NCBI GenBank assembly: GCA_028698305.1
Contig: JAQVDN010000005.1
Coordinates: 1 to 64,000, forward strand
Reading direction: 5' to 3'
Length of the DNA stretch: 64,000 nucleotides
From: Candidatus Altimarinota bacterium
Lineage (GTDB): Bacteria; Patescibacteriota; Gracilibacteria; BD1-5; UBA6164
The position numbers and the translations under genes are program-made. Positions 54,967 through 64,000 of the stretch are shown piece after piece. The notes under the pieces were generated by a model. The model was given only the letters and a program-made list of their open reading frames with translations. It did not search any database and was not told where the DNA came from. The stretch's first letter is position 1, and every line of letters starts with the position of its first letter.

Positions 54967-56049
54967 ATGTATAAAAAAATAATTCTATTTTCAATAATAT
55001 TTTTTTTCTTTTTTGAAAATAGTTTTGCAAATAATTATATAGAAAGAACAATAGATTGACATAAATTTAGAACAATAAAATATGATGTAAAATCAAAGGA
55101 TTATATATTTAAAATCTGAATTAATCCAGATTTTTGAGCAACATCACTAAGAGAACTTATGGAAAAAAACAATTGAGTTTCCGCTATAAATTGAGTATTT
55201 TTTTGTCCTGCAAGTTATAGTGAATGTGGTTGAAAAAATTTTACAAATAATGAAAGATATTTTAAATGAATCAAAATTGGTACAAGCTCATCTACTCAAG
55301 ATAGGGTAGTTTTTGCAATTGATAAAAAAAATAAACCATTTTTGTATCAAACTAATAAATTAAATATGGATAGGGAATCAGACATATACTATGGTTTTGC
55401 AAATTTCCCACTTTTATTACAAGATTGAGAAAGTAAGATACAAGATTATATAGATTTGGGTTTAGTTGATTCTAAAATGACAGCTAAAATAGACAGAAAT
55501 TTTATTTGTAGTGATATAACTAATAGATTTATATATACTTGATATGTTTCTAGTATTTCTCTTCTAGATTTACCTGATTTACTATTAAAATTTGGTTGTT
55601 ATAATGCTTTAAATCTCGATGCTGGTTGATCTAGTGCTATGATTTACAATGGTAGATATATATTGTGACCAGCTAGAGATATAATGGATTGAGTAGTTAT
55701 TGAGAGAAAATGATTAGATACTAAAAATATAATTGATAATTCAGTAAAGGTAGTTTCAATAATAGAAAAAAAGATTTCAAAGATGTCTTATAATGAAAAA
55801 ATAGATTATATTAATAATTTAATTTCATCATTAACAAAATTAAGAACATCTATTTATGAAAAAAATAGCAAGGATTTATATGATTTAGAAACTTGAAAGA
55901 AAAATGGTTATGAAATAGAAATAAAAAGCCTAAAAAATATTGAAATAATTTATATGGTCAATTATATAAACAAATTATTTTCTGAATTAAAGATTAAATT
56001 AACAGATGAAAATAATCAAATAGAAGACAAAAATAATTTGTTGTTTTAA
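54967..56049 (+). CDS. Secreted phosphodiester glycosidase (NAGPA domain)
   Basis: 360 residues beginning with a signal peptide (KKIILFSIIFFFFFENSFA). The NAGPA/phosphodiester glycosidase domain has SAINGVFFCPASY and the family signature NLDAGGSSAMIYNGRY. These enzymes cleave GlcNAc-phosphodiesters, for example in teichoic-acid-like or exopolysaccharide links; substrate here unknown. The C-terminal 100 residues form a coiled coil. It ends at a terminator just before the CRISPR array. Confidence 0.85.
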
Positions 56050-56085
56050 AAAAAATATATCCATAAAATGGATATATTTTTTTTA
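56048..56085 (+). terminator. Intrinsic terminator
   Basis: Stem AAAAATATATCCAT/ATGGATATATTTTT with a T run, separating the glycosidase gene from the CRISPR array. Confidence 0.85.
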
Positions 56086-56087
56086 AA

Positions 56088-58195
56088 TTTATAAAGTAGA
56101 AATTTATTGGTGGCTTTAAATAATGTAATTGATAAGATTATTAATCCTAAATCTACAAAAGTAGAAATTTATTGGTGGCTTTAAATCAGGATTTTCTCCG
56201 AAAATTTCAATATATCTACAAAAGTAGAAATTTATTGGTGGCTTTAAATTAAATTCTACTGCAAAAGATTTCATATCTACAAAAGTAGAAATTTATTGGT
56301 GGCTTTAAATGCAACTCTAACTTGTCAATAAGCATAGGATCTACAAAAGTAGAAATTTATTGGTGGCTTTAAATTATAATTAGACCACATAAGATAGTAG
56401 AATCTACAAAAGTAGAAATTTATTGGTGGCTTTAAATAATCAGTATTAAGATTATCATCTTTGATCTACAAAAGTAGAAATTTATTGGTGGCTTTAAATT
56501 ATAATTAGACCACATAAGATAGTAGAATCTACAAAAGTAGAAATTTATTGGTGGCTTTAAATAACATCAACAGAATGAACAAAAGTCCTATCTACAAAAG
56601 TAGAAATTTATTGGTGGCTTTAAATTAAGAGATATGAGAGAAAATAAGTTAATCTACAAAAGTAGAAATTTATTGGTGGCTTTAAATATATTTCAATATC
56701 AAAGTAATAATAAAATCTACAAAAGTAGAAATTTATTGGTGGCTTTAAATATTCAAATTATAATTTCTTGACCGAATCTACAAAAGTAGAAATTTATTGG
56801 TGGCTTTAAATATTCAAATTATAATTTCTTGACCGAATCTACAAAAGTAGAAATTTATTGGTGGCTTTAAATTTTTTGCCGCTTGATTCCCTTCTTTTAT
56901 CTACAAAAGTAGAAATTTATTGGTGGCTTTAAATGTGCAATAAGTATTGCTTTAATGCTTTATCTACAAAAGTAGAAATTTATTGGTGGCTTTAAATGAA
57001 AAAGCAACTTTTGAAAAAACTCTTATCTACAAAAGTAGAAATTTATTGGTGGCTTTAAATACAATGGCTAATAGAACAAAATTATATTATCTACAAAAGT
57101 AGAAATTTATTGGTGGCTTTAAATTACAACTCATTTTAAATCTAATCATCTATCTACAAAAGTAGAAATTTATTGGTGGCTTTAAATTACAACTCATTTT
57201 AAATCTAATCATCTATCTACAAAAGTAGAAATTTATTGGTGGCTTTAAATAAAAGCCAAAAGTAACACAACCTACTAATCTACAAAAGTAGAAATTTATT
57301 GGTGGCTTTAAATGAGTAAATGGAACATCTTGATCAACATATCTACAAAAGTAGAAATTTATTGGTGGCTTTAAATTTGACAATTGGGCTGTTAAGGGTA
57401 TAGATCTACAAAAGTAGAAATTTATTGGTGGCTTTAAATTTTTCTATTAGAATCAATAAAGCTTTATCTACAAAAGTAGAAATTTATTGGTGGCTTTAAA
57501 TACAAGAACAAAAAATCAAAGAAGCAAATCTACAAAAGTAGAAATTTATTGGTGGCTTTAAATACAAGAACAAAAAATCAAAGAAGCAAATCTACAAAAG
57601 TAGAAATTTATTGGTGGCTTTAAATTGATTTATTAATGTCTGATTGAATAAATCTACAAAAGTAGAAATTTATTGGTGGCTTTAAATGCTATAAATGCAG
57701 GATTTGCTAATTGTATCTACAAAAGTAGAAATTTATTGGTGGCTTTAAATAAAAAAAATTTAAAAAAGAATTACTTAATCTACAAAAGTAGAAATTTATT
57801 GGTGGCTTTAAATTTTCAGAGGAATAGTGATAATTTCTTGATCTACAAAAGTAGAAATTTATTGGTGGCTTTAAATTCTTTTTTGTCAAACTCAAAATAG
57901 AAGCATCTACAAAAGTAGAAATTTATTGGTGGCTTTAAATATTGAGCTACTCCAGTTAATTATTATATATCTACAAAAGTAGAAATTTATTGGTGGCTTT
58001 AAATATAAGGGGGGTATGAGATAAAACTATTTATCTACAAAAGTAGAAATTTATTGGTGGCTTTAAATACTGCTAAAATATTTGCTTGAAACCAAATCTA
58101 CAAAAGTAGAAATTTATTGGTGGCTTTAAATCAACTATGTCAAATTCGCTTGAAAGCTCATCTACAAAAGTAGAAATTTATTGGTGGCTTTAAAT
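56088..58195 (-). CRISPR. CRISPR array, type V-A-like repeat, 34 repeats and 33 spacers
   Basis: The 36-bp repeat begins ATCTACAAAAGTAG and ends TTGGTGGCTTTAAAT on the plus strand. Its minus-strand 3' end, AATTTCTACTTTTGTAGAT, is the Cas12a-type handle with stem TCTAC/GTAGA, so the array is transcribed right to left. Repeats are identical except the leftmost (56088-56121), which is degenerate and marks the trailer. Spacers are 25-29 bp. Four occur twice: three as adjacent duplicates (ending in repeats at about 56776/56837, 57152/57215, 57528/57590) and one with a single spacer between copies (before 56402 and 56527). Confidence 0.98.
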
Positions 58196-58420
58196 AGCAT
58201 TTTTATTTTAAACAAGCCAAAAAGATACAAATAATTTATATTTCAAAATTATGACTTATGGCTTATTTAAAGTATTGTCTAAATATTAAGACTTAGGTTT
58301 ACATTTTTTTTAAAACAAACAACATAACTTCCACTTTTAATAAAATTTTTTATTAAAAGTTACAGATTATTTTAAAGAACTTTTAATCATTATATAAATA
58401 AAATTTACTTTTCAAACTTT
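58196..58420 (-). promoter_or_regulatory. CRISPR leader
   Basis: 225 bp of AT-rich DNA between the last perfect repeat and the cas2 stop. Repeat degeneration at the opposite end and minus-strand transcription place the leader here. Contains an AACTTTTAATAAAA/TTTTATTAAAAGTT-type inverted repeat (about 58330-58363), which may end the cas transcript. Confidence 0.7.
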
Positions 58421-58699
58421 TTACAAAAATAATATTTCTTCTTCTTCCAAAGCAGGTTGTCAGTACCTAATTACCTTATCATTATTTGCCTTTGAAATAG
58501 GGAATAATAATATACTATCTGCTCATGTAAATTTTTTACTATATACTTCTTCTATTTCTCTTTTTAGTATATTTAAAATCCTTTCACTATTTTTAATTTC
58601 AAAAACACTATATTGTAACCTTCTACCATATTTTTTTAATAATTTACCAAATTTAGTTCTTGTTTTGTCATCATGTATGTCATATGTAACTATTAGCAT
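58421..58699 (-). CDS. cas2: CRISPR-associated endonuclease Cas2
   Basis: 92 residues starting MLIVTYDIHDDKTRTKFGKL, the Cas2 ferredoxin-like fold with the active-site aspartate in TYDIHDD, then YGRRLQYSVFEIK. With Cas1 it forms the spacer-integration complex. Start is two bases after the Cas1 stop, so it is the last gene of the operon. Confidence 0.96.
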
Positions 58700-58701
58700 A
58701 T

Positions 58702-59667
58702 TTATTCATTAATTTTAAATTTTGGAAACTCATTTCTTCATTTCATAAAATATTTATAATAGTCTTTTATAAATATAAACATTTCTTTTTTGTAACTAAG
58801 TAATTCTTTAAAAAATATAGCATTGTATTTCCTAGAATTTTCCCATGGTAAAATGTATTGTCAGTTTTGAAACTTAAAATCTTTTTCATTGATCTGTCAT
58901 AAATTATATGCTTTCAAAACTGCCTTATCTATGATACACCTAAATGGTTCCATTAAATCAAGTGCTAGAGATTTTCTAGCATACCAAGTTCTATGATATA
59001 CTCCATAGTAATTATCAAATCAATATAACCTCAATAAAGCTTCTATAAAATGAAATAAATAAGTATATCATATATCTAAAAGTAGATTTTTTATATCCAT
59101 CTTTGTTCTAGGAGCTCTTTTGTACCAGCCTATTTTTTTGAAATAATTTGTAAAAAATAATTTTGATACATTTCATTCATAACCTAATAAGCTCTCATAA
59201 TTATCAACACTATCAATTTTTGTGATTATACCATTTATCTTTGTTATATCTCATTTTATATCTAAGTCTTTTTCTCTTATAGCTTTCAATAATTCAAGTT
59301 GATTATGTGTTTTTAGTTTTATTATACTTTTTGCTATTTCAAGCATTTCTTCTTCTGTTTTTTCGTATTGTTTTTTTCTAAGTACATAGTTTCACTCTGT
59401 TTCGTTTCATATAACTAGATATGGAGTAAAGTTTTTTTTCATCATAACAAGTGTGATTCAATACTCTTGAAATTTTCTTATAAGCACACTTGTAATAGTT
59501 GTTTCTCAAATTAAGAATATAGCAAATATCTTGAATAAGCTAATTTTATTTTTTATAATTCCTTCTTCTTTTATAGTTAAATTTTCGTTTTCAAAATTTA
59601 TATTTTTTGTATCAAAACTTTCTATAAATATAATTTGTTTTTCATCAAAATCTGGTAATTGAAGCAT
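58702..59667 (-). CDS. cas1: CRISPR-associated endonuclease/integrase Cas1
   Basis: 321 residues. The N-terminal beta domain precedes the helical catalytic domain with GYTYLFHFIEALLRLYGFDN, YYGVYHRTWYARKSLALDLM (His) and MEPFRCIIDKAV (Asp region), the Cas1 metal-site signatures. It integrates protospacers at the leader end. Nine bases separate it from cas4. Confidence 0.96.
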
Positions 59668-59676
59668 ATTTATAAG

Positions 59677-60282
59677 TTATTCAAATAAATGTAATTGAGG
59701 ATAAACTTCTCAAATATAATAATCACATAATTCTCTATAAATACATTTCATACATTTACTTGTATTTTGAGACCATTTTTTTGTGTTTGGATTAAATCTT
59801 CTATATTCTTCAAGTAGATTTTGAAACTTTATAAGTCATTTATTATCAGGCTTATAAATAGGGTACTTTTTGTTATCTTTCATACTATAAAGAGATATCT
59901 TTTTTATATGATATCATAACTCTTCCAGGCAAAACATTTGTCACCGAAGTTGGTATTTGTATCAAGTATAGATTTTTTCTTTGTTGTTTTCATCTCTATG
60001 TACTTGATTTTTTCTTTCTATTAATTCTCAAGTTTTTGTATTAAATATGTCTATTTTTCAAGAAATCTTAAAGTTTTCACTATATACATCTAGTCATTGT
60101 AGTATGTATTTACTTGTTGAATAGATTTTATTATCTATAGTTTCATGAGCTATCGTTCAAGCAATTTGAACCTCATCTTGATAGAGTTTTTTCTCATAAC
60201 TATCATATAATGTATGATAATAAATACTTTTGGGACAAAAGATAAAATCGTTTAGAGTAGATAATTTTATATAGGATTCCAT
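59677..60282 (-). CDS. cas4: CRISPR-associated exonuclease Cas4
   Basis: 201 residues. STLNDFIFCPKSIYYHTLYD carries the first cluster cysteine, VQIAGTIAHE the RecB-type histidine region, GKIDIFNTKTGELIERKN the nuclease D/EXK core, YKYQLRGQMFCLEEL the QxxxY-like motif, and SKCMKCIYRELCDYY the three C-terminal Fe-S cysteines. It trims protospacers and selects the PAM side. Its ATG lies two bases after the stop of the restriction endonuclease gene. Confidence 0.93.
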
Positions 60283-60284
60283 AG

Positions 60285-61346
60285 TTATTTTTTTAGGATA
60301 TCAATATTGTACTTGTGAATATAATTTTTTCTTTTTTCATTTAATAGAGTATTGATTATTTTATAATTTTTATTGTTTGGAAACATCATTTGTAGATATT
60401 TTTTGTAATCATCATTTGTAAATAATATTTCTCCATTTTCATTAAAATATATCTTATTATTATCATATAACTTATGAAATTGAGTAGGTAAATTAACTCA
60501 ATTATTTTCATCTGCTATCATATACCAATATCTTAAATCTAATTTTTTTATCTCAGATACTGGGTAAATATGCGCTGCTTCACACATATCTTCAGGTAAT
60601 TCTCAAAATAAATGATCGGTTGGTTTTATATTTCTTAATCTGTTTTTAAATATTCTTCTTAATTTTCATATTCTTAATTCATTTTTTTCTTTTTCATCAT
60701 TTATTTCTATTTTATAATTTGGAGATAATATTAATTCTATAAATTCATTTACATCACTAGAATTATCAATTTTATTTGTTATTTCATTTATTTCGTTAGA
60801 TTCCAATGCTGTAAATAATACTTTATTAAAATCTAGAAAATTACTTTTTATTTTAGGAAACATATCAAAATACTCTTCTAAGTTTATTTGTTTTAAATTT
60901 GAGTTCCTGATATAATTTTTTTCTTTATCTCTAATATTTTTAAAAAAATTAATGAACATATATTGATTATACTTTCATCAATATATTATATAAGGTGTCC
61001 TTTTTATATTGTAATCACTTCATGTTGGATTACTTCAAGTAGTAAATTTATCATGACTCAATATAGTTCATAAATTATTGAAAAAATAATTGTTTATATA
61101 TCTTATTTTTTCACTTGATAATTTTTCATTTGTTTTATAATCTCTCATTAATTCTTTTCTAAATTTAATAACATTTTTATCAAATTTAGTTCAATATTTT
61201 TCTTTTCATCTAAATTCTGTTCATTCTAAAAGCTCACACCATTCATCAATTATTAATCACTTATCATTAATCACATATTTTGCAATTCATTTTGTAAATG
61301 ATTTTGCTTTTGGTTTTGATACAAAAGGGATATTAATTATTTTCAT
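60285..61346 (-). CDS. HNH-family type II restriction endonuclease
   Basis: 353 residues. The N-terminal 230 residues show no known domain. The C-terminal part has CEAAHIYPVSEIKKLDLRYW (the first HNH histidine, about residue 256), ADENNGVNLPTQFHKLYDNN (Asn and final His) and IYFNENGEILF, the standard HNH order seen in many restriction enzymes (AAHI-P...NGI-L...H-LFD). With the adjacent C5 methyltransferase it makes a type II restriction-modification pair. It starts three bases downstream of the methyltransferase stop. TGA glycines are frequent, so it is adapted to the host code. Confidence 0.82.
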
Positions 61347-61349
61347 ATA

Positions 61350-62474
61350 CTATAGATAAAAATTAAAAATTTCTTCCAATACCTTAACATTTATTGAATT
61401 TCAAGCTAAAAATTTAATTTTTGCTTCTGAAATTCAGTATTTAACTAAATTATCATAAAAATCTTTATTTATAAATCATTGTAGTTTTAAATGTTCGTAA
61501 GCATTTAAATATATTATTTTTTCATTATGAAAAATTTTTATTCTTGATTGTGCTCCAGATGCAGTTATAGTTGGTGATTTTCAATCTTTAAAATATACAA
61601 AACTTTCAGCATTGAAATTAGAATATCACTTTATATAACTTTTTTTAATTCATGTTTTTTGATTCATTTGAATTATTTCAAATTTCCTATTTGTTTTAAA
61701 CAAGTCATGATTTAAGTTTTTTTCAAATATATCATCAATAAATTTAGTATTATTTATTTTATTTAATTTAAATTCATTAGGATTATTTCATAAATATGAA
61801 ACAATAAAGACTCTTTCTCTTCTTTGAGCTTCTCATAAATCGGCAGAATTAACTATAAATGGTTTTGTTGACTTATATCACATTTTTTCTAATTCAAATA
61901 TCCACTCATCTAAATCAGTTTTAAATGCTTCATTTAATATTGCTTTAACGTTTTCCATTAATAAAACCTTTGGTAAATATTTTTTATCTTTAAAATATAT
62001 TTCTTTAAGTATTCTTTCTATTTCCCATAGTAATCATGATCTTGATTTAGATTCTTTTGAAAATCATCTTTGTTTTCATTGCTGACTTATATCTTGACAG
62101 GGAAATGAATAAGTAAATAAATCTATATTTTTTTTCATTAATTGAACTCATTCTATAAACCTAATATCTAAATTTCAAAATTTATCTATTACTTGCTTTA
62201 AAATGGATAATTTTTCTTCACTTAATCATCATAAATATTTCGCTCTTTTTTTACTATCAAGACTTAATGAAAATTTTTCTAAAAATAATAAAACTTCTTT
62301 TTTATCTATACTTTTTGACTTTAATCTCAAGTGATTAACTCAATATGCAATAATGGCATCAGTATACCAATCACTAATTCAAGCAATATTAACTTTATAT
62401 CACAAATTTTTCAGTGCTTGATGTTGACTTCAAATTCATGAAAAAGCTTCAAATAATACAATTTTTTTACTCAT
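61350..62474 (-). CDS. DNA (cytosine-5-)-methyltransferase
   Basis: 374 residues. Motif I EAFSGIGSQHQALKNLG, motif IV FTYSFPCQDISQQGKQRGF with the catalytic PCQ (about 123), motif VI LLMENVKAIL, motif VIII EAQRRERVFIVSYLG, and motif X KIKFLAGNSINVKVLEEIF. The target-recognition region lies between VIII and IX. It protects host DNA from the HNH nuclease encoded next. First gene of the tight operon methyltransferase - HNH nuclease - cas4 - cas1 - cas2. Confidence 0.95.
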
Positions 62475-62747
62475 AAAAAGGCACTTACTATATAAAGTAA
62501 ACGCCATAAAACTAAAAAGTATAAAATACTTTTTTTAATTCAAAAATAGATTTTTAGGCAATATAAAAAGGAGGAAATTAGCTACCTGATTATATCGCCA
62601 AAAAACCTAAATATGTGTAAAAAAACATAAATAAGGAGAGGAAAAGCTAATTTCCTCCTTTTTATTTTCTTTTACACATATATCATATTTAGTTTTTTTG
62701 GCTTTTTAATTCTAGTCGTATTTTAAAAGAATTCAAGCAAAAGAAAA
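62475..62747. promoter_or_regulatory. Intergenic region with two interleaved long inverted repeats
   Basis: Arm B1 (62565-62583, core AAAGGAGGAAATTAGC) pairs perfectly over 19 bp with B2 (62645-62663). Arm A1 (62597-62621, GCCAAAAAACCTAAATATG) pairs with A2 (62671-62702) apart from a 7-nt insert in A2. The order B1-A1-B2-A2 cannot form two nested hairpins, so an RNA from here would be pseudoknotted or switch between two forms. It must also contain the promoter of the R-M/cas operon. No gene seen. Confidence 0.7.
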
Positions 62748-62775
62748 AAACTACCATAAAATGGTAGTTTTTAGA
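62748..62775 (-). terminator. Terminator of the type V effector gene
   Basis: Stem AAAAACTACCAT/ATGGTAGTTTTT overlapping the stop codon, with a run of T in the minus-strand sense. Confidence 0.85.
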
Positions 62776-64000
62776 GTCAAATTTTACAACATATATTATA
62801 AGCTCAATTATCATCTCAATTTTTAATTAAATCTAAATTTAATCATTCTTTTTTATATTTTTTTATAACTATATTATTATCTTTTCAAGTTATAAATCAA
62901 CAGTCACTACAAGTTGTAATATTATCTTTTCTCTTTACATTTATTGATTTACAAATAGGACATCTTTTACTTGTGTTATGTGGTCTTACAAAACTAACTA
63001 TTCAAAACTTTCTATAGTTTTCAGTTTGAACCCATAAAATTTTTTCTTTTTCAAAATTTAATTTATTTACATTATCTAAAGAATTAAAAAATGGAACTAA
63101 ATGTAATATTCATTCTTCAACCGAAACTTTATATAACTTTCTTAATAACTGATTTTCAAAAAAATGATAAGTTCACATTCAAGCTAAAGCTCAATTTTCT
63201 TGATCTTTAAAATTTGTTTTTATTGAAATATAACTGTTATTTAATCAATCATTTTGTCACATAAAAGATTGATTTAAATTTTCAACTGCAATTTTTACTT
63301 TATAATCATATTTTTTCATTAAATAAACTATCACTCAAATCATATTTGCAATAACTCATTTTTTTAAATCTTCACTAGAATCAAGCTCAATTGTAAGTTT
63401 CATTAAATTTTGTTTTTCTATTTCTGATAAAGTTTTATCATTTTTCAACTTTTCATAGTTTTCAAACATTTCTTCAAAAATATTTACTGGCAAATCTTCA
63501 AAATGATGTCATTCTTTGTAAGGAGTTATTAATTCTTTTATATTATTTTGTCTTTCTTCTTTTGTTTGATACTTTTTTAAAAAATTCAAAACTCATTTTT
63601 CATTTGAAGACATTTGATATTGTAACTTTCTTATATAAGCTAATTGCTTTAATTTTATATTTTGTTTATTTGTTCAAGTTGAATTTCAATTTTCATCTTT
63701 TGCTTCAAATAGAGACAAATCAACTAAAAATTTATTTCAATCTTTATCTGATTCAATTTTTAAATTTGTTAAATCTAAAATTCATTCAATTCTATTCTTT
63801 TTATATTCCCATTTTTTAGAATTATTATTAAAATATTTTGTATAAATCTCATAACTTTGAATAATTCAATTTTTGTTTGTAATACATAATGTAGCTAATT
63901 GTTTTATTCACCTATCAATTCAAAAAATATAATAATCATCTAAACTATCAAAATATTTATTTACTTTTTCTTTATTAAAATTTTGAACTAATTCGTTTTG
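62771..64000 (-). CDS. Type V CRISPR effector, Cas12a2-like (C-terminal 409 residues; start outside window)
   Basis: The frame enters from the right edge and ends at TAA 62771-62773. Visible motifs: RuvC I in YYIFGIDRGIKQLATLCI (about residue 25), RuvC II in KVKIAVENLNQSF (about 237), then FGIVSFVRPHNTSKRCPICKS and ITTCSDCGF, a CxxC...CxxC zinc ribbon (about 344), and RuvC III in NGDDNGAYNICCKIGL at the very end. In Cas12a the segment after YVPAWNTSKIDP opens the Nuc domain; here a short zinc ribbon replaces it, as in Cas12a2, which shares Cas12a-type crRNAs but cuts nucleic acid non-specifically on recognising target RNA. Other zinc-ribbon Cas12 types cannot be fully excluded without the N-terminal part. 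Confidence 0.8.

What the first reader, a model, noticed from the sequence alone, without database searches (positions are those of the whole stretch)
58421..62474. Restriction-modification genes fused into the CRISPR adaptation operon
Seen: C5 methyltransferase, HNH nuclease, cas4, cas1 and cas2 run in one direction with gaps of 3, 2, 9 and 2 bp. Type V loci normally have the effector followed directly by cas4-cas1-cas2; here an R-M pair stands in that place. Inference: joint expression could couple R-M cleavage, which supplies DNA ends, to spacer capture by Cas4-Cas1-Cas2.
Basis: partly seen in the sequence, partly recalled or inferred. Interest (0 to 1): 0.85.

Follow-up and report, generated by a model that had tools for sequence, protein, structure and literature searches.

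The report
Restriction cassette captured inside Cas12a locus
In one Gracilibacterium a portable DNA-methylating and DNA-cutting gene pair, carrying its own switch-like RNA leader, sits between the Cas12a gene and the spacer-acquisition genes, so the acquisition genes are probably now expressed from the pair's leader.

Summary
The gene order is real: under genetic code 25, dcm, hnh, cas4, cas1 and cas2 run on the minus strand with gaps of 3, 2, 9 and 2 bp.

The order is unique here: 0 of 22 other cas4 neighbourhoods fetched from the class carry dcm or hnh. A homologous dcm-hnh pair stands alone in one relative. Both pairs follow a ~155-nt structured leader with two mutually exclusive, covarying folds, seen at E<=1e-4 only in this order. 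In 22 of its 30 best-scoring loci it precedes R-M genes of several types; elsewhere also pilin-like and zinc-ribbon genes.

In relatives the cas12a-cas4 interval often holds toxin-antitoxin genes, and cas4 often has its own upstream hairpin, absent here. No terminator separates hnh from cas4.

Best reading: transcriptional capture of the adaptation genes by a portable R-M cassette. Transcription is inferred from sequence only.

The parts
62771..64000 (-). cas12a, 3' part (whole gene C13:66442-62771, 1223 aa, divergent Cas12a branch)
62746..62772 (-). intrinsic terminator-like hairpin + T run overlapping the cas12a stop
62709..62736 (-). candidate promoter of the R-M unit (TTGAAT-16-TAGAAT); other leader copies have promoter-like sequence at the same position
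   Evidence: (promoter-like sites are at chance frequency overall); inferred
62548..62703 (-). structured leader element with two alternative folds (class I)
62480..62505 (-). terminator-like hairpin + TTTTT abutting the dcm start codon
61350..62474 (-). C5 cytosine DNA methyltransferase, nearest solved relatives 8c56/4dkj (M.MpeI-like; enzyme name recalled)
60285..61346 (-). HNH endonuclease, MAG4270 family putative restriction endonuclease
59677..60282 (-). cas4 (type V)
58702..59667 (-). cas1 (type V)
58421..58699 (-). cas2
56093..58190 (-). CRISPR array, 34 repeats (the one at 56093 degenerate), 33 spacers of 25-29 nt, 29 distinct; repeat contains AAATTTCTACTTTTGTAGAT

Best explanation
This is a type V-A CRISPR-Cas locus into which a portable type II-like R-M cassette has been inserted between cas12a and cas4. 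The cassette is a C5 methyltransferase plus a MAG4270-family HNH nuclease, headed by its own promoter-like region and a two-state structured RNA leader. Shown by sequence: order and gaps, terminator-like site after cas12a, leader before dcm, no terminator-like site before cas4, absence of the hairpin that most family relatives carry before cas4, and a homologous stand-alone cassette with the same kind of leader in a relative. Inferred: the cassette works as an ordinary R-M defence and possible addiction module, and cas4-cas1-cas2 are transcribed mainly by read-through from its leader-controlled promoter, so the coupling to CRISPR is shared regulation and not shared chemistry.
For: Order and gaps. 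Cas12a upstream with terminator-like site. Leader is real: z=-8.46; homologues in 18 of 353 class genomes by DNA at E<=1e-4, 36 of 353 by model R1 at E<=0.01; model R2, built without class I copies, recovers the window copy at E=1.3e-7, and its 38 positive genomes of 353 all lie in one order. In 31 copies, own-copy helices beat swapped ones for B/B', A/A', A'/A'' and the variable stem, 0 of 2000 permutations each. Of the 30 distinct R1 loci with E<=1e-4, 22 are followed by an R-M or restriction gene. dcm-hnh with leader alone in G124: 68% and 58% identity. Hairpin before cas4: 5 of 7 family relatives, not in the window.
Against: No transcript data. Promoter-like sites occur at chance frequency (47 found, 47.3 expected), so a cryptic promoter inside hnh cannot be excluded. 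Single instance in one draft genome (88% complete); no independent strain. The leader also precedes non-R-M genes, mainly among R2-only hits, so it is not an R-M-specific device. Model R1 includes the window copy in its training set. Inside class I alone the A/A' and A'/A'' tests are weaker (11 and 39 of 2000 permutations reach the observed value).
Confidence: 0.6

Rival explanations
1. One reading: the HNH nuclease cuts unmethylated invading DNA and the ends are captured by Cas4-Cas1-Cas2, co-expression having been selected for this.
For: 2-bp gap and same direction; all five proteins match their families.
Against: Order absent in 22 of 22 other neighbourhoods; the pair also lives away from cas genes; unrelated toxin-antitoxin genes use the same interval; no spacer signal testable.
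Confidence: 0.1
2. Chance insertion without consequence: cas4-cas1-cas2 keep enough expression from a cryptic promoter in hnh, or adaptation is silent.
For: Single case; a close Cas12a relative in G099 (75% identity) has an array but no cas4, cas1, cas2 near it and no cas4 match in the genome.
Against: cas4, cas1, cas2 reading frames are intact with family scores over cut-offs; array of 33 spacers.
Confidence: 0.25
3. Addiction guard: the cas12a-cas4 interval is a slot where addiction modules (toxin-antitoxin or R-M) are kept because losing the CRISPR locus would then harm the cell. This can be true together with the best explanation.
For: Toxin or toxin-antitoxin genes upstream of cas4 in 7 of 22 other neighbourhoods; a related TA-like pair directly upstream of cas12a here; ParE matches are rare, 17 in 9 genomes, and 3 of them are in this interval. 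TA pairs guarding CRISPR are known in principle (CreTA, PMC9458426, search listing).
Against: 8 of 22 intervals are too short for any gene and 2 hold other cargo; toxin activity not tested; several Pfam matches are under the curated cut-off. The 9 genomes include G073, chosen after its TA pair was seen.
Confidence: 0.3

Closest known systems
Type V-A (Cas12a) CRISPR-Cas
   Same: Cas12a effector, type V cas4 and cas1, cas2, V-A-like repeat, order effector-cas4-cas1-cas2-array
   Different: dcm-hnh cassette with its own leader between effector and cas4; effector from a branch unlike that of three other loci of the family tested
Type II R-M with M.MpeI-like C5 methyltransferase and MAG4270-family HNH nuclease
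   Same: adjacent methyltransferase and HNH genes; near full-length match of dcm to 8c56/4dkj; NF045952 full-length
   Different: located in a CRISPR locus; preceded by a structured leader; sequence specificity unknown
Attenuators / riboswitch-type leader RNAs
   Same: promoter-like sequence, alternative base-paired states, terminator-like hairpin before the start codon
   Different: no Rfam match; ligand or signal unknown; seen at E<=1e-4 only in one order of the genomes searched
Vampirococcus lugosii type V locus (PMC8080830, passages read)
   Same: extra gene between Cpf1 and Cas1 in a related lineage
   Different: the extra gene there is a 1158-aa protein proposed as an effector; no R-M pair in the locus is described in the passages read
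CreTA and immunity-suicide coupling (PMC9458426 search listing; PMC3506569 and PMC12737573 passages)
   Same: addiction or toxin genes placed inside immunity loci
   Different: here protein toxin-antitoxin or R-M genes; no crRNA-like antitoxin found

Membership tests
Type V-A CRISPR-Cas | Cas12a effector | tested here: met
   P0006 matches PADLOC Cas12a PDLC01232, 299.7 bits, residues 11-1219; no NCBIfam Cpf1 match, so divergent
Type V-A CRISPR-Cas | type V cas4 and cas1, cas2 | tested here: met
   TIGR04328, TIGR04329, TIGR01573 over cut-offs
Type V-A CRISPR-Cas | array with V-A type repeat | tested here: met
   33 exact copies of the 20-nt motif in one array and nowhere else in the genome at up to 1 mismatch; that the motif is V-A type is recalled
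Type II R-M system | DNA methyltransferase with intact catalytic motifs | tested here: met
   PF00145 150 bits; PCQ and ENV segments aligned to 8c56; that these are catalytic is recalled
Type II R-M system | candidate endonuclease next to it | tested here: met
   NF045952, HNH_2; same pair in G124
Type II R-M system | endonuclease and methyltransferase share one recognition site, cleavage blocked by methylation | not testable with these tools
   needs biochemistry or methylome
CpG-specific methyltransferase (M.MpeI group) | CG recognition | tested here: inconclusive
   similar over nearly full length; CpG depletion is family-wide and not tied to dcm presence
Attenuator / riboswitch-type leader | covarying, mutually exclusive helices | tested here: met
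Attenuator / riboswitch-type leader | regulated read-through in response to a signal | not testable with these tools
   needs expression data
Known Rfam family | match over gathering score | tested here: not met
   window 55900-64000 and four loci with leaders: none over gathering score on a leader
CreTA | ectopic repeat-derived antitoxin RNA | tested here: not met
   no repeat-core copy outside the array at up to 1 mismatch; more degenerate copies not excluded

The most novel reading that the evidence does not exclude
An order-specific bistable leader RNA is a common control switch for R-M and other accessory genes, and by capturing cas4-cas1-cas2 it makes CRISPR spacer acquisition respond to the same signal as restriction, so innate and adaptive defence turn on together.
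Probability: 0.25. Interest if true: 0.8.

Novelty: new variant of a known kind. Interest (0 to 1): 0.55.

Why it matters
It gives a natural case in which CRISPR adaptation genes appear to have been put under the control of an R-M cassette, a testable form of cross-talk between innate and adaptive defence. It also exposes two further things: a structured leader RNA family without an Rfam match that heads R-M genes of types I, II and III in one candidate-phylum order, and an interval in Cas12a loci of these bacteria that repeatedly holds toxin-antitoxin genes.

Tried and rejected
HNH structure prediction from a two-row alignment gave mean pLDDT 36, useless, so no fold search was run. Relatives of the HNH in viral contigs (186 pattern hits, none confirmed), phages and plasmids: none. 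The genome-contig scan returned only the G124 relative; its two short peptide patterns may miss distant homologues. CpG depletion as a footprint of the methyltransferase was rejected: all f1 genomes sampled are depleted (rho 0.07-0.59) whether or not they carry dcm. The idea that the leader marks only R-M operons was rejected: among 40 further R2 loci fetched, I recognise R-M or HNH genes at four (L183, L189, L192, L193), while others head pilin-like, zinc-ribbon or unassigned genes. The leader before other cas4 genes: no match at E<0.1 in the 22 other neighbourhoods. A Shine-Dalgarno reading of the AAGGAGG in the leader was rejected: most class II copies lack it and 0 of 49 window ORFs have an SD-like motif within 18 nt of the start taken. 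The leader as an integron or transposon end was considered because of its inverted repeats and rejected because nearly all class I copies point at the next gene from a short distance and carry promoter-like and terminator-like parts.

Limits: of the 22 R-M calls among 30 R1 loci, genes were assigned by Pfam for the window, L097, L098, L101, L103, L139, L146, L147, L150, L151, L153, by tblastn to the L139 pair for L096, L099, L100, L102, L104, L105, L140, L141, L142, L144 and to the window dcm for L154's locus in G124. The eight without an R-M call are L106, L107, L138, L143, L145, L148, L149, L152. The covariation test used 31 copies: these 30 plus L156 (E=0.0017); two weak R1 hits that I had fetched, L155 and L157, were left out of it. 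Outside the order R1 has seven weak matches with E from 3.6e-4 to 0.0095, not followed. Of 70 R2 matches, G102:C3:677899 was not fetched. Of the 23 other genomes with a cas4 match, G352 (27 bits) was not fetched. I did not analyse the 3.3-kb interval of L053, the unseen one of L059, or the truncated cas4 of L060. In L055 no cas12a was detected on the contig.

Full report
Observation. The genome uses TGA for glycine; table 25 gives long frames where table 11 gives none in this region. The window is C13:1-64000 of a draft genome of 1.29 Mb in 18 contigs. Beyond the window the gene at 62771 continues to 66442 as a 1223-aa Cas12a. It matches PADLOC Cas12a at 299.7 bits but no NCBIfam Cpf1 model, while three family relatives tested carry ordinary Cas12a branches. 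The full order is therefore cas12a, terminator-like site, leader, dcm, hnh, cas4, cas1, cas2, array.

Survey. In 353 genomes of the class, 24 have a type V cas4 match and 22 are over the cut-off, own genome included. I fetched 22 of the 23 other neighbourhoods; tblastn with the window dcm and hnh hits none of them. The HNH family is over its cut-off in only 2 of 353 genomes: the own genome and G124. In G124 the pair (68% and 58% identical) is followed by unrelated genes, and none of the six query proteins other than dcm and hnh hit the 18 kb examined. G124's contig is recorded as Candidatus Gracilibacteria.

The interval. Between the large ORF in the effector position and cas4, 8 of the 22 other loci have about 0-125 bp (L040, L042-L047, L049); 7 carry toxin or toxin-antitoxin genes just upstream of cas4 (L041 PemK twice; L048 YafQ; L051, L054, L055, L056 ParE and in L051 also Phd/YefM by Pfam, some under the curated cut-off; L057 by similarity to L051 and to the window's pair); 2 hold other cargo (L050, L058); 2 have room but no recognised gene (L039, L052); 3 were not assessable or not analysed (L053, L059, L060). 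The own genome has a TA-like pair directly upstream of cas12a, 64% (toxin) and 75% (antitoxin) identical to that of L057. ParE matches at E<=0.1 number 17 in 9 genomes, 3 of them in this interval. In 5 of 7 family relatives a hairpin plus T run stands shortly before cas4 (a sixth, L055, by eye); the window has none. So the R-M pair occupies a place often used by addiction-type genes, and the hairpin that relatives have before cas4 is missing.

The leader. The 263-nt gap between cas12a and the longest dcm ORF folds far better than shuffles (z -8.46). A second copy in the same genome precedes an EcoRI-type methyltransferase with a GmrSD-HNH partner. Copies in other genomes share a plan: promoter-like sequence, arm A, variable arm, segment B, partner B*, variable arm', arm A', segment B' with a T run, arm A'', and often a hairpin plus T run touching the start codon. 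A' can pair with A or with A'', and B with B* or B'. With 31 copies, own-copy pairing scored 34.9 against 18.7 for swapped copies (B/B'), 26.4 against 17.4 (A/A'), 23.2 against 16.2 (A'/A'') and 28.5 against 17.0 (variable stem); none of 2000 permutations reached the observed mean in any of the four tests. Inside class I (13 copies) A/A' and A'/A'' are weaker (11 and 39 of 2000); inside class II (18 copies) all four give 0 of 2000. Permutation does not remove relatedness. By my script a hairpin plus T run lies just before an ATG in 19 of 31 leaders (in L096 before an alternative ATG) and in 0 of 49 window ORFs, whose first ATG was taken as start, so that dcm itself counts there as negative.

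What it heads. Of 30 distinct R1 loci with E<=1e-4 (25 genomes; overlapping opposite-strand matches dropped), 22 precede R-M or restriction genes: 13 EcoRI-type methyltransferases, 5 N6/N4 methyltransferases (L098, L101, L146, L147, L150), 2 C5 methyltransferases (window, G124), 1 type I HsdR-like (L097), 1 Mrr-like (L153). R2 finds 70 matches in 38 of 353 genomes, all in this order; among the 40 newly fetched, R-M or HNH genes follow at four, including a Tsp45I-type enzyme with a methyltransferase (L192), and pilin-like (L170, L195) or zinc-ribbon genes (L161, L188) at others. Only ten proteins of these 40 loci were family-tested. The element is thus a leader of accessory genes in general, with R-M as the main class among the copies nearest to the window's.

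Mechanism. Shown: anatomy, lack of a terminator-like site before cas4, leader conservation. Inferred: transcription from about 62703 through cas2 under leader control. The methyltransferase aligns over nearly its full length with 8c56, which I recall to be M.MpeI; M.MpeI is described as CG-specific in PMC10899764 and PMC5944983 (search listing), so CG is a candidate site, untested here. A 2-bp site would demand tight control of the nuclease, which would fit a regulated leader (inference).

Literature. Passages of PMC8080830 report an extra gene between Cpf1 and Cas1 in a related bacterium and several R-M systems. [quoted passage not shown] Passages of PMC3506569 and PMC12737573 discuss coupling of toxins and immunity. 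The searches listed no paper whose title or start of abstract describes an R-M pair inside a Cas12a adaptation operon or a leader RNA of R-M operons in this lineage; the full texts were not read through and most subscription journals are not held.

Verdict.

Noticed in passing
G000:C12:73739-73897 (-) and 70 R2 matches in 38 genomes: A structured leader RNA family without Rfam match, confined to one order at E<=1e-4, heading R-M, pilin-like, zinc-ribbon and other accessory genes.
   Followed up: partly
L051, L054, L055, L056, L057, L041, L048: Toxin-antitoxin or toxin genes in the interval upstream of cas4 in Cas12a loci of this class.
   Followed up: partly
L143:1038-3676: Behind a leader a 776-aa ORF without family match is followed by a 36-residue remnant (97% identical) of the GmrSD-HNH gene, as if one cassette had replaced another behind a fixed leader.
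   Followed up: no
L160:8467-12234: G099 has a Cas12a 75% identical to the window's, an array and a single repeat core beside cas12a, but no cas4, cas1 or cas2 nearby.
   Followed up: partly
L058:4776-5321: A 181-aa HNH protein resembling the IscB HNH region starts 3 bp after cas12a.
   Followed up: no
L059:6011-8712: A response regulator and further genes (histidine-kinase-like by eye) on the opposite strand sit between cas4 and cas1.
   Followed up: no
window 1-64000: CpG is strongly depleted (rho 0.34), family-wide in the loci sampled.
   Followed up: partly
window 56093-58190: Four spacers occur twice in the array, three of them in adjacent positions.
   Followed up: no
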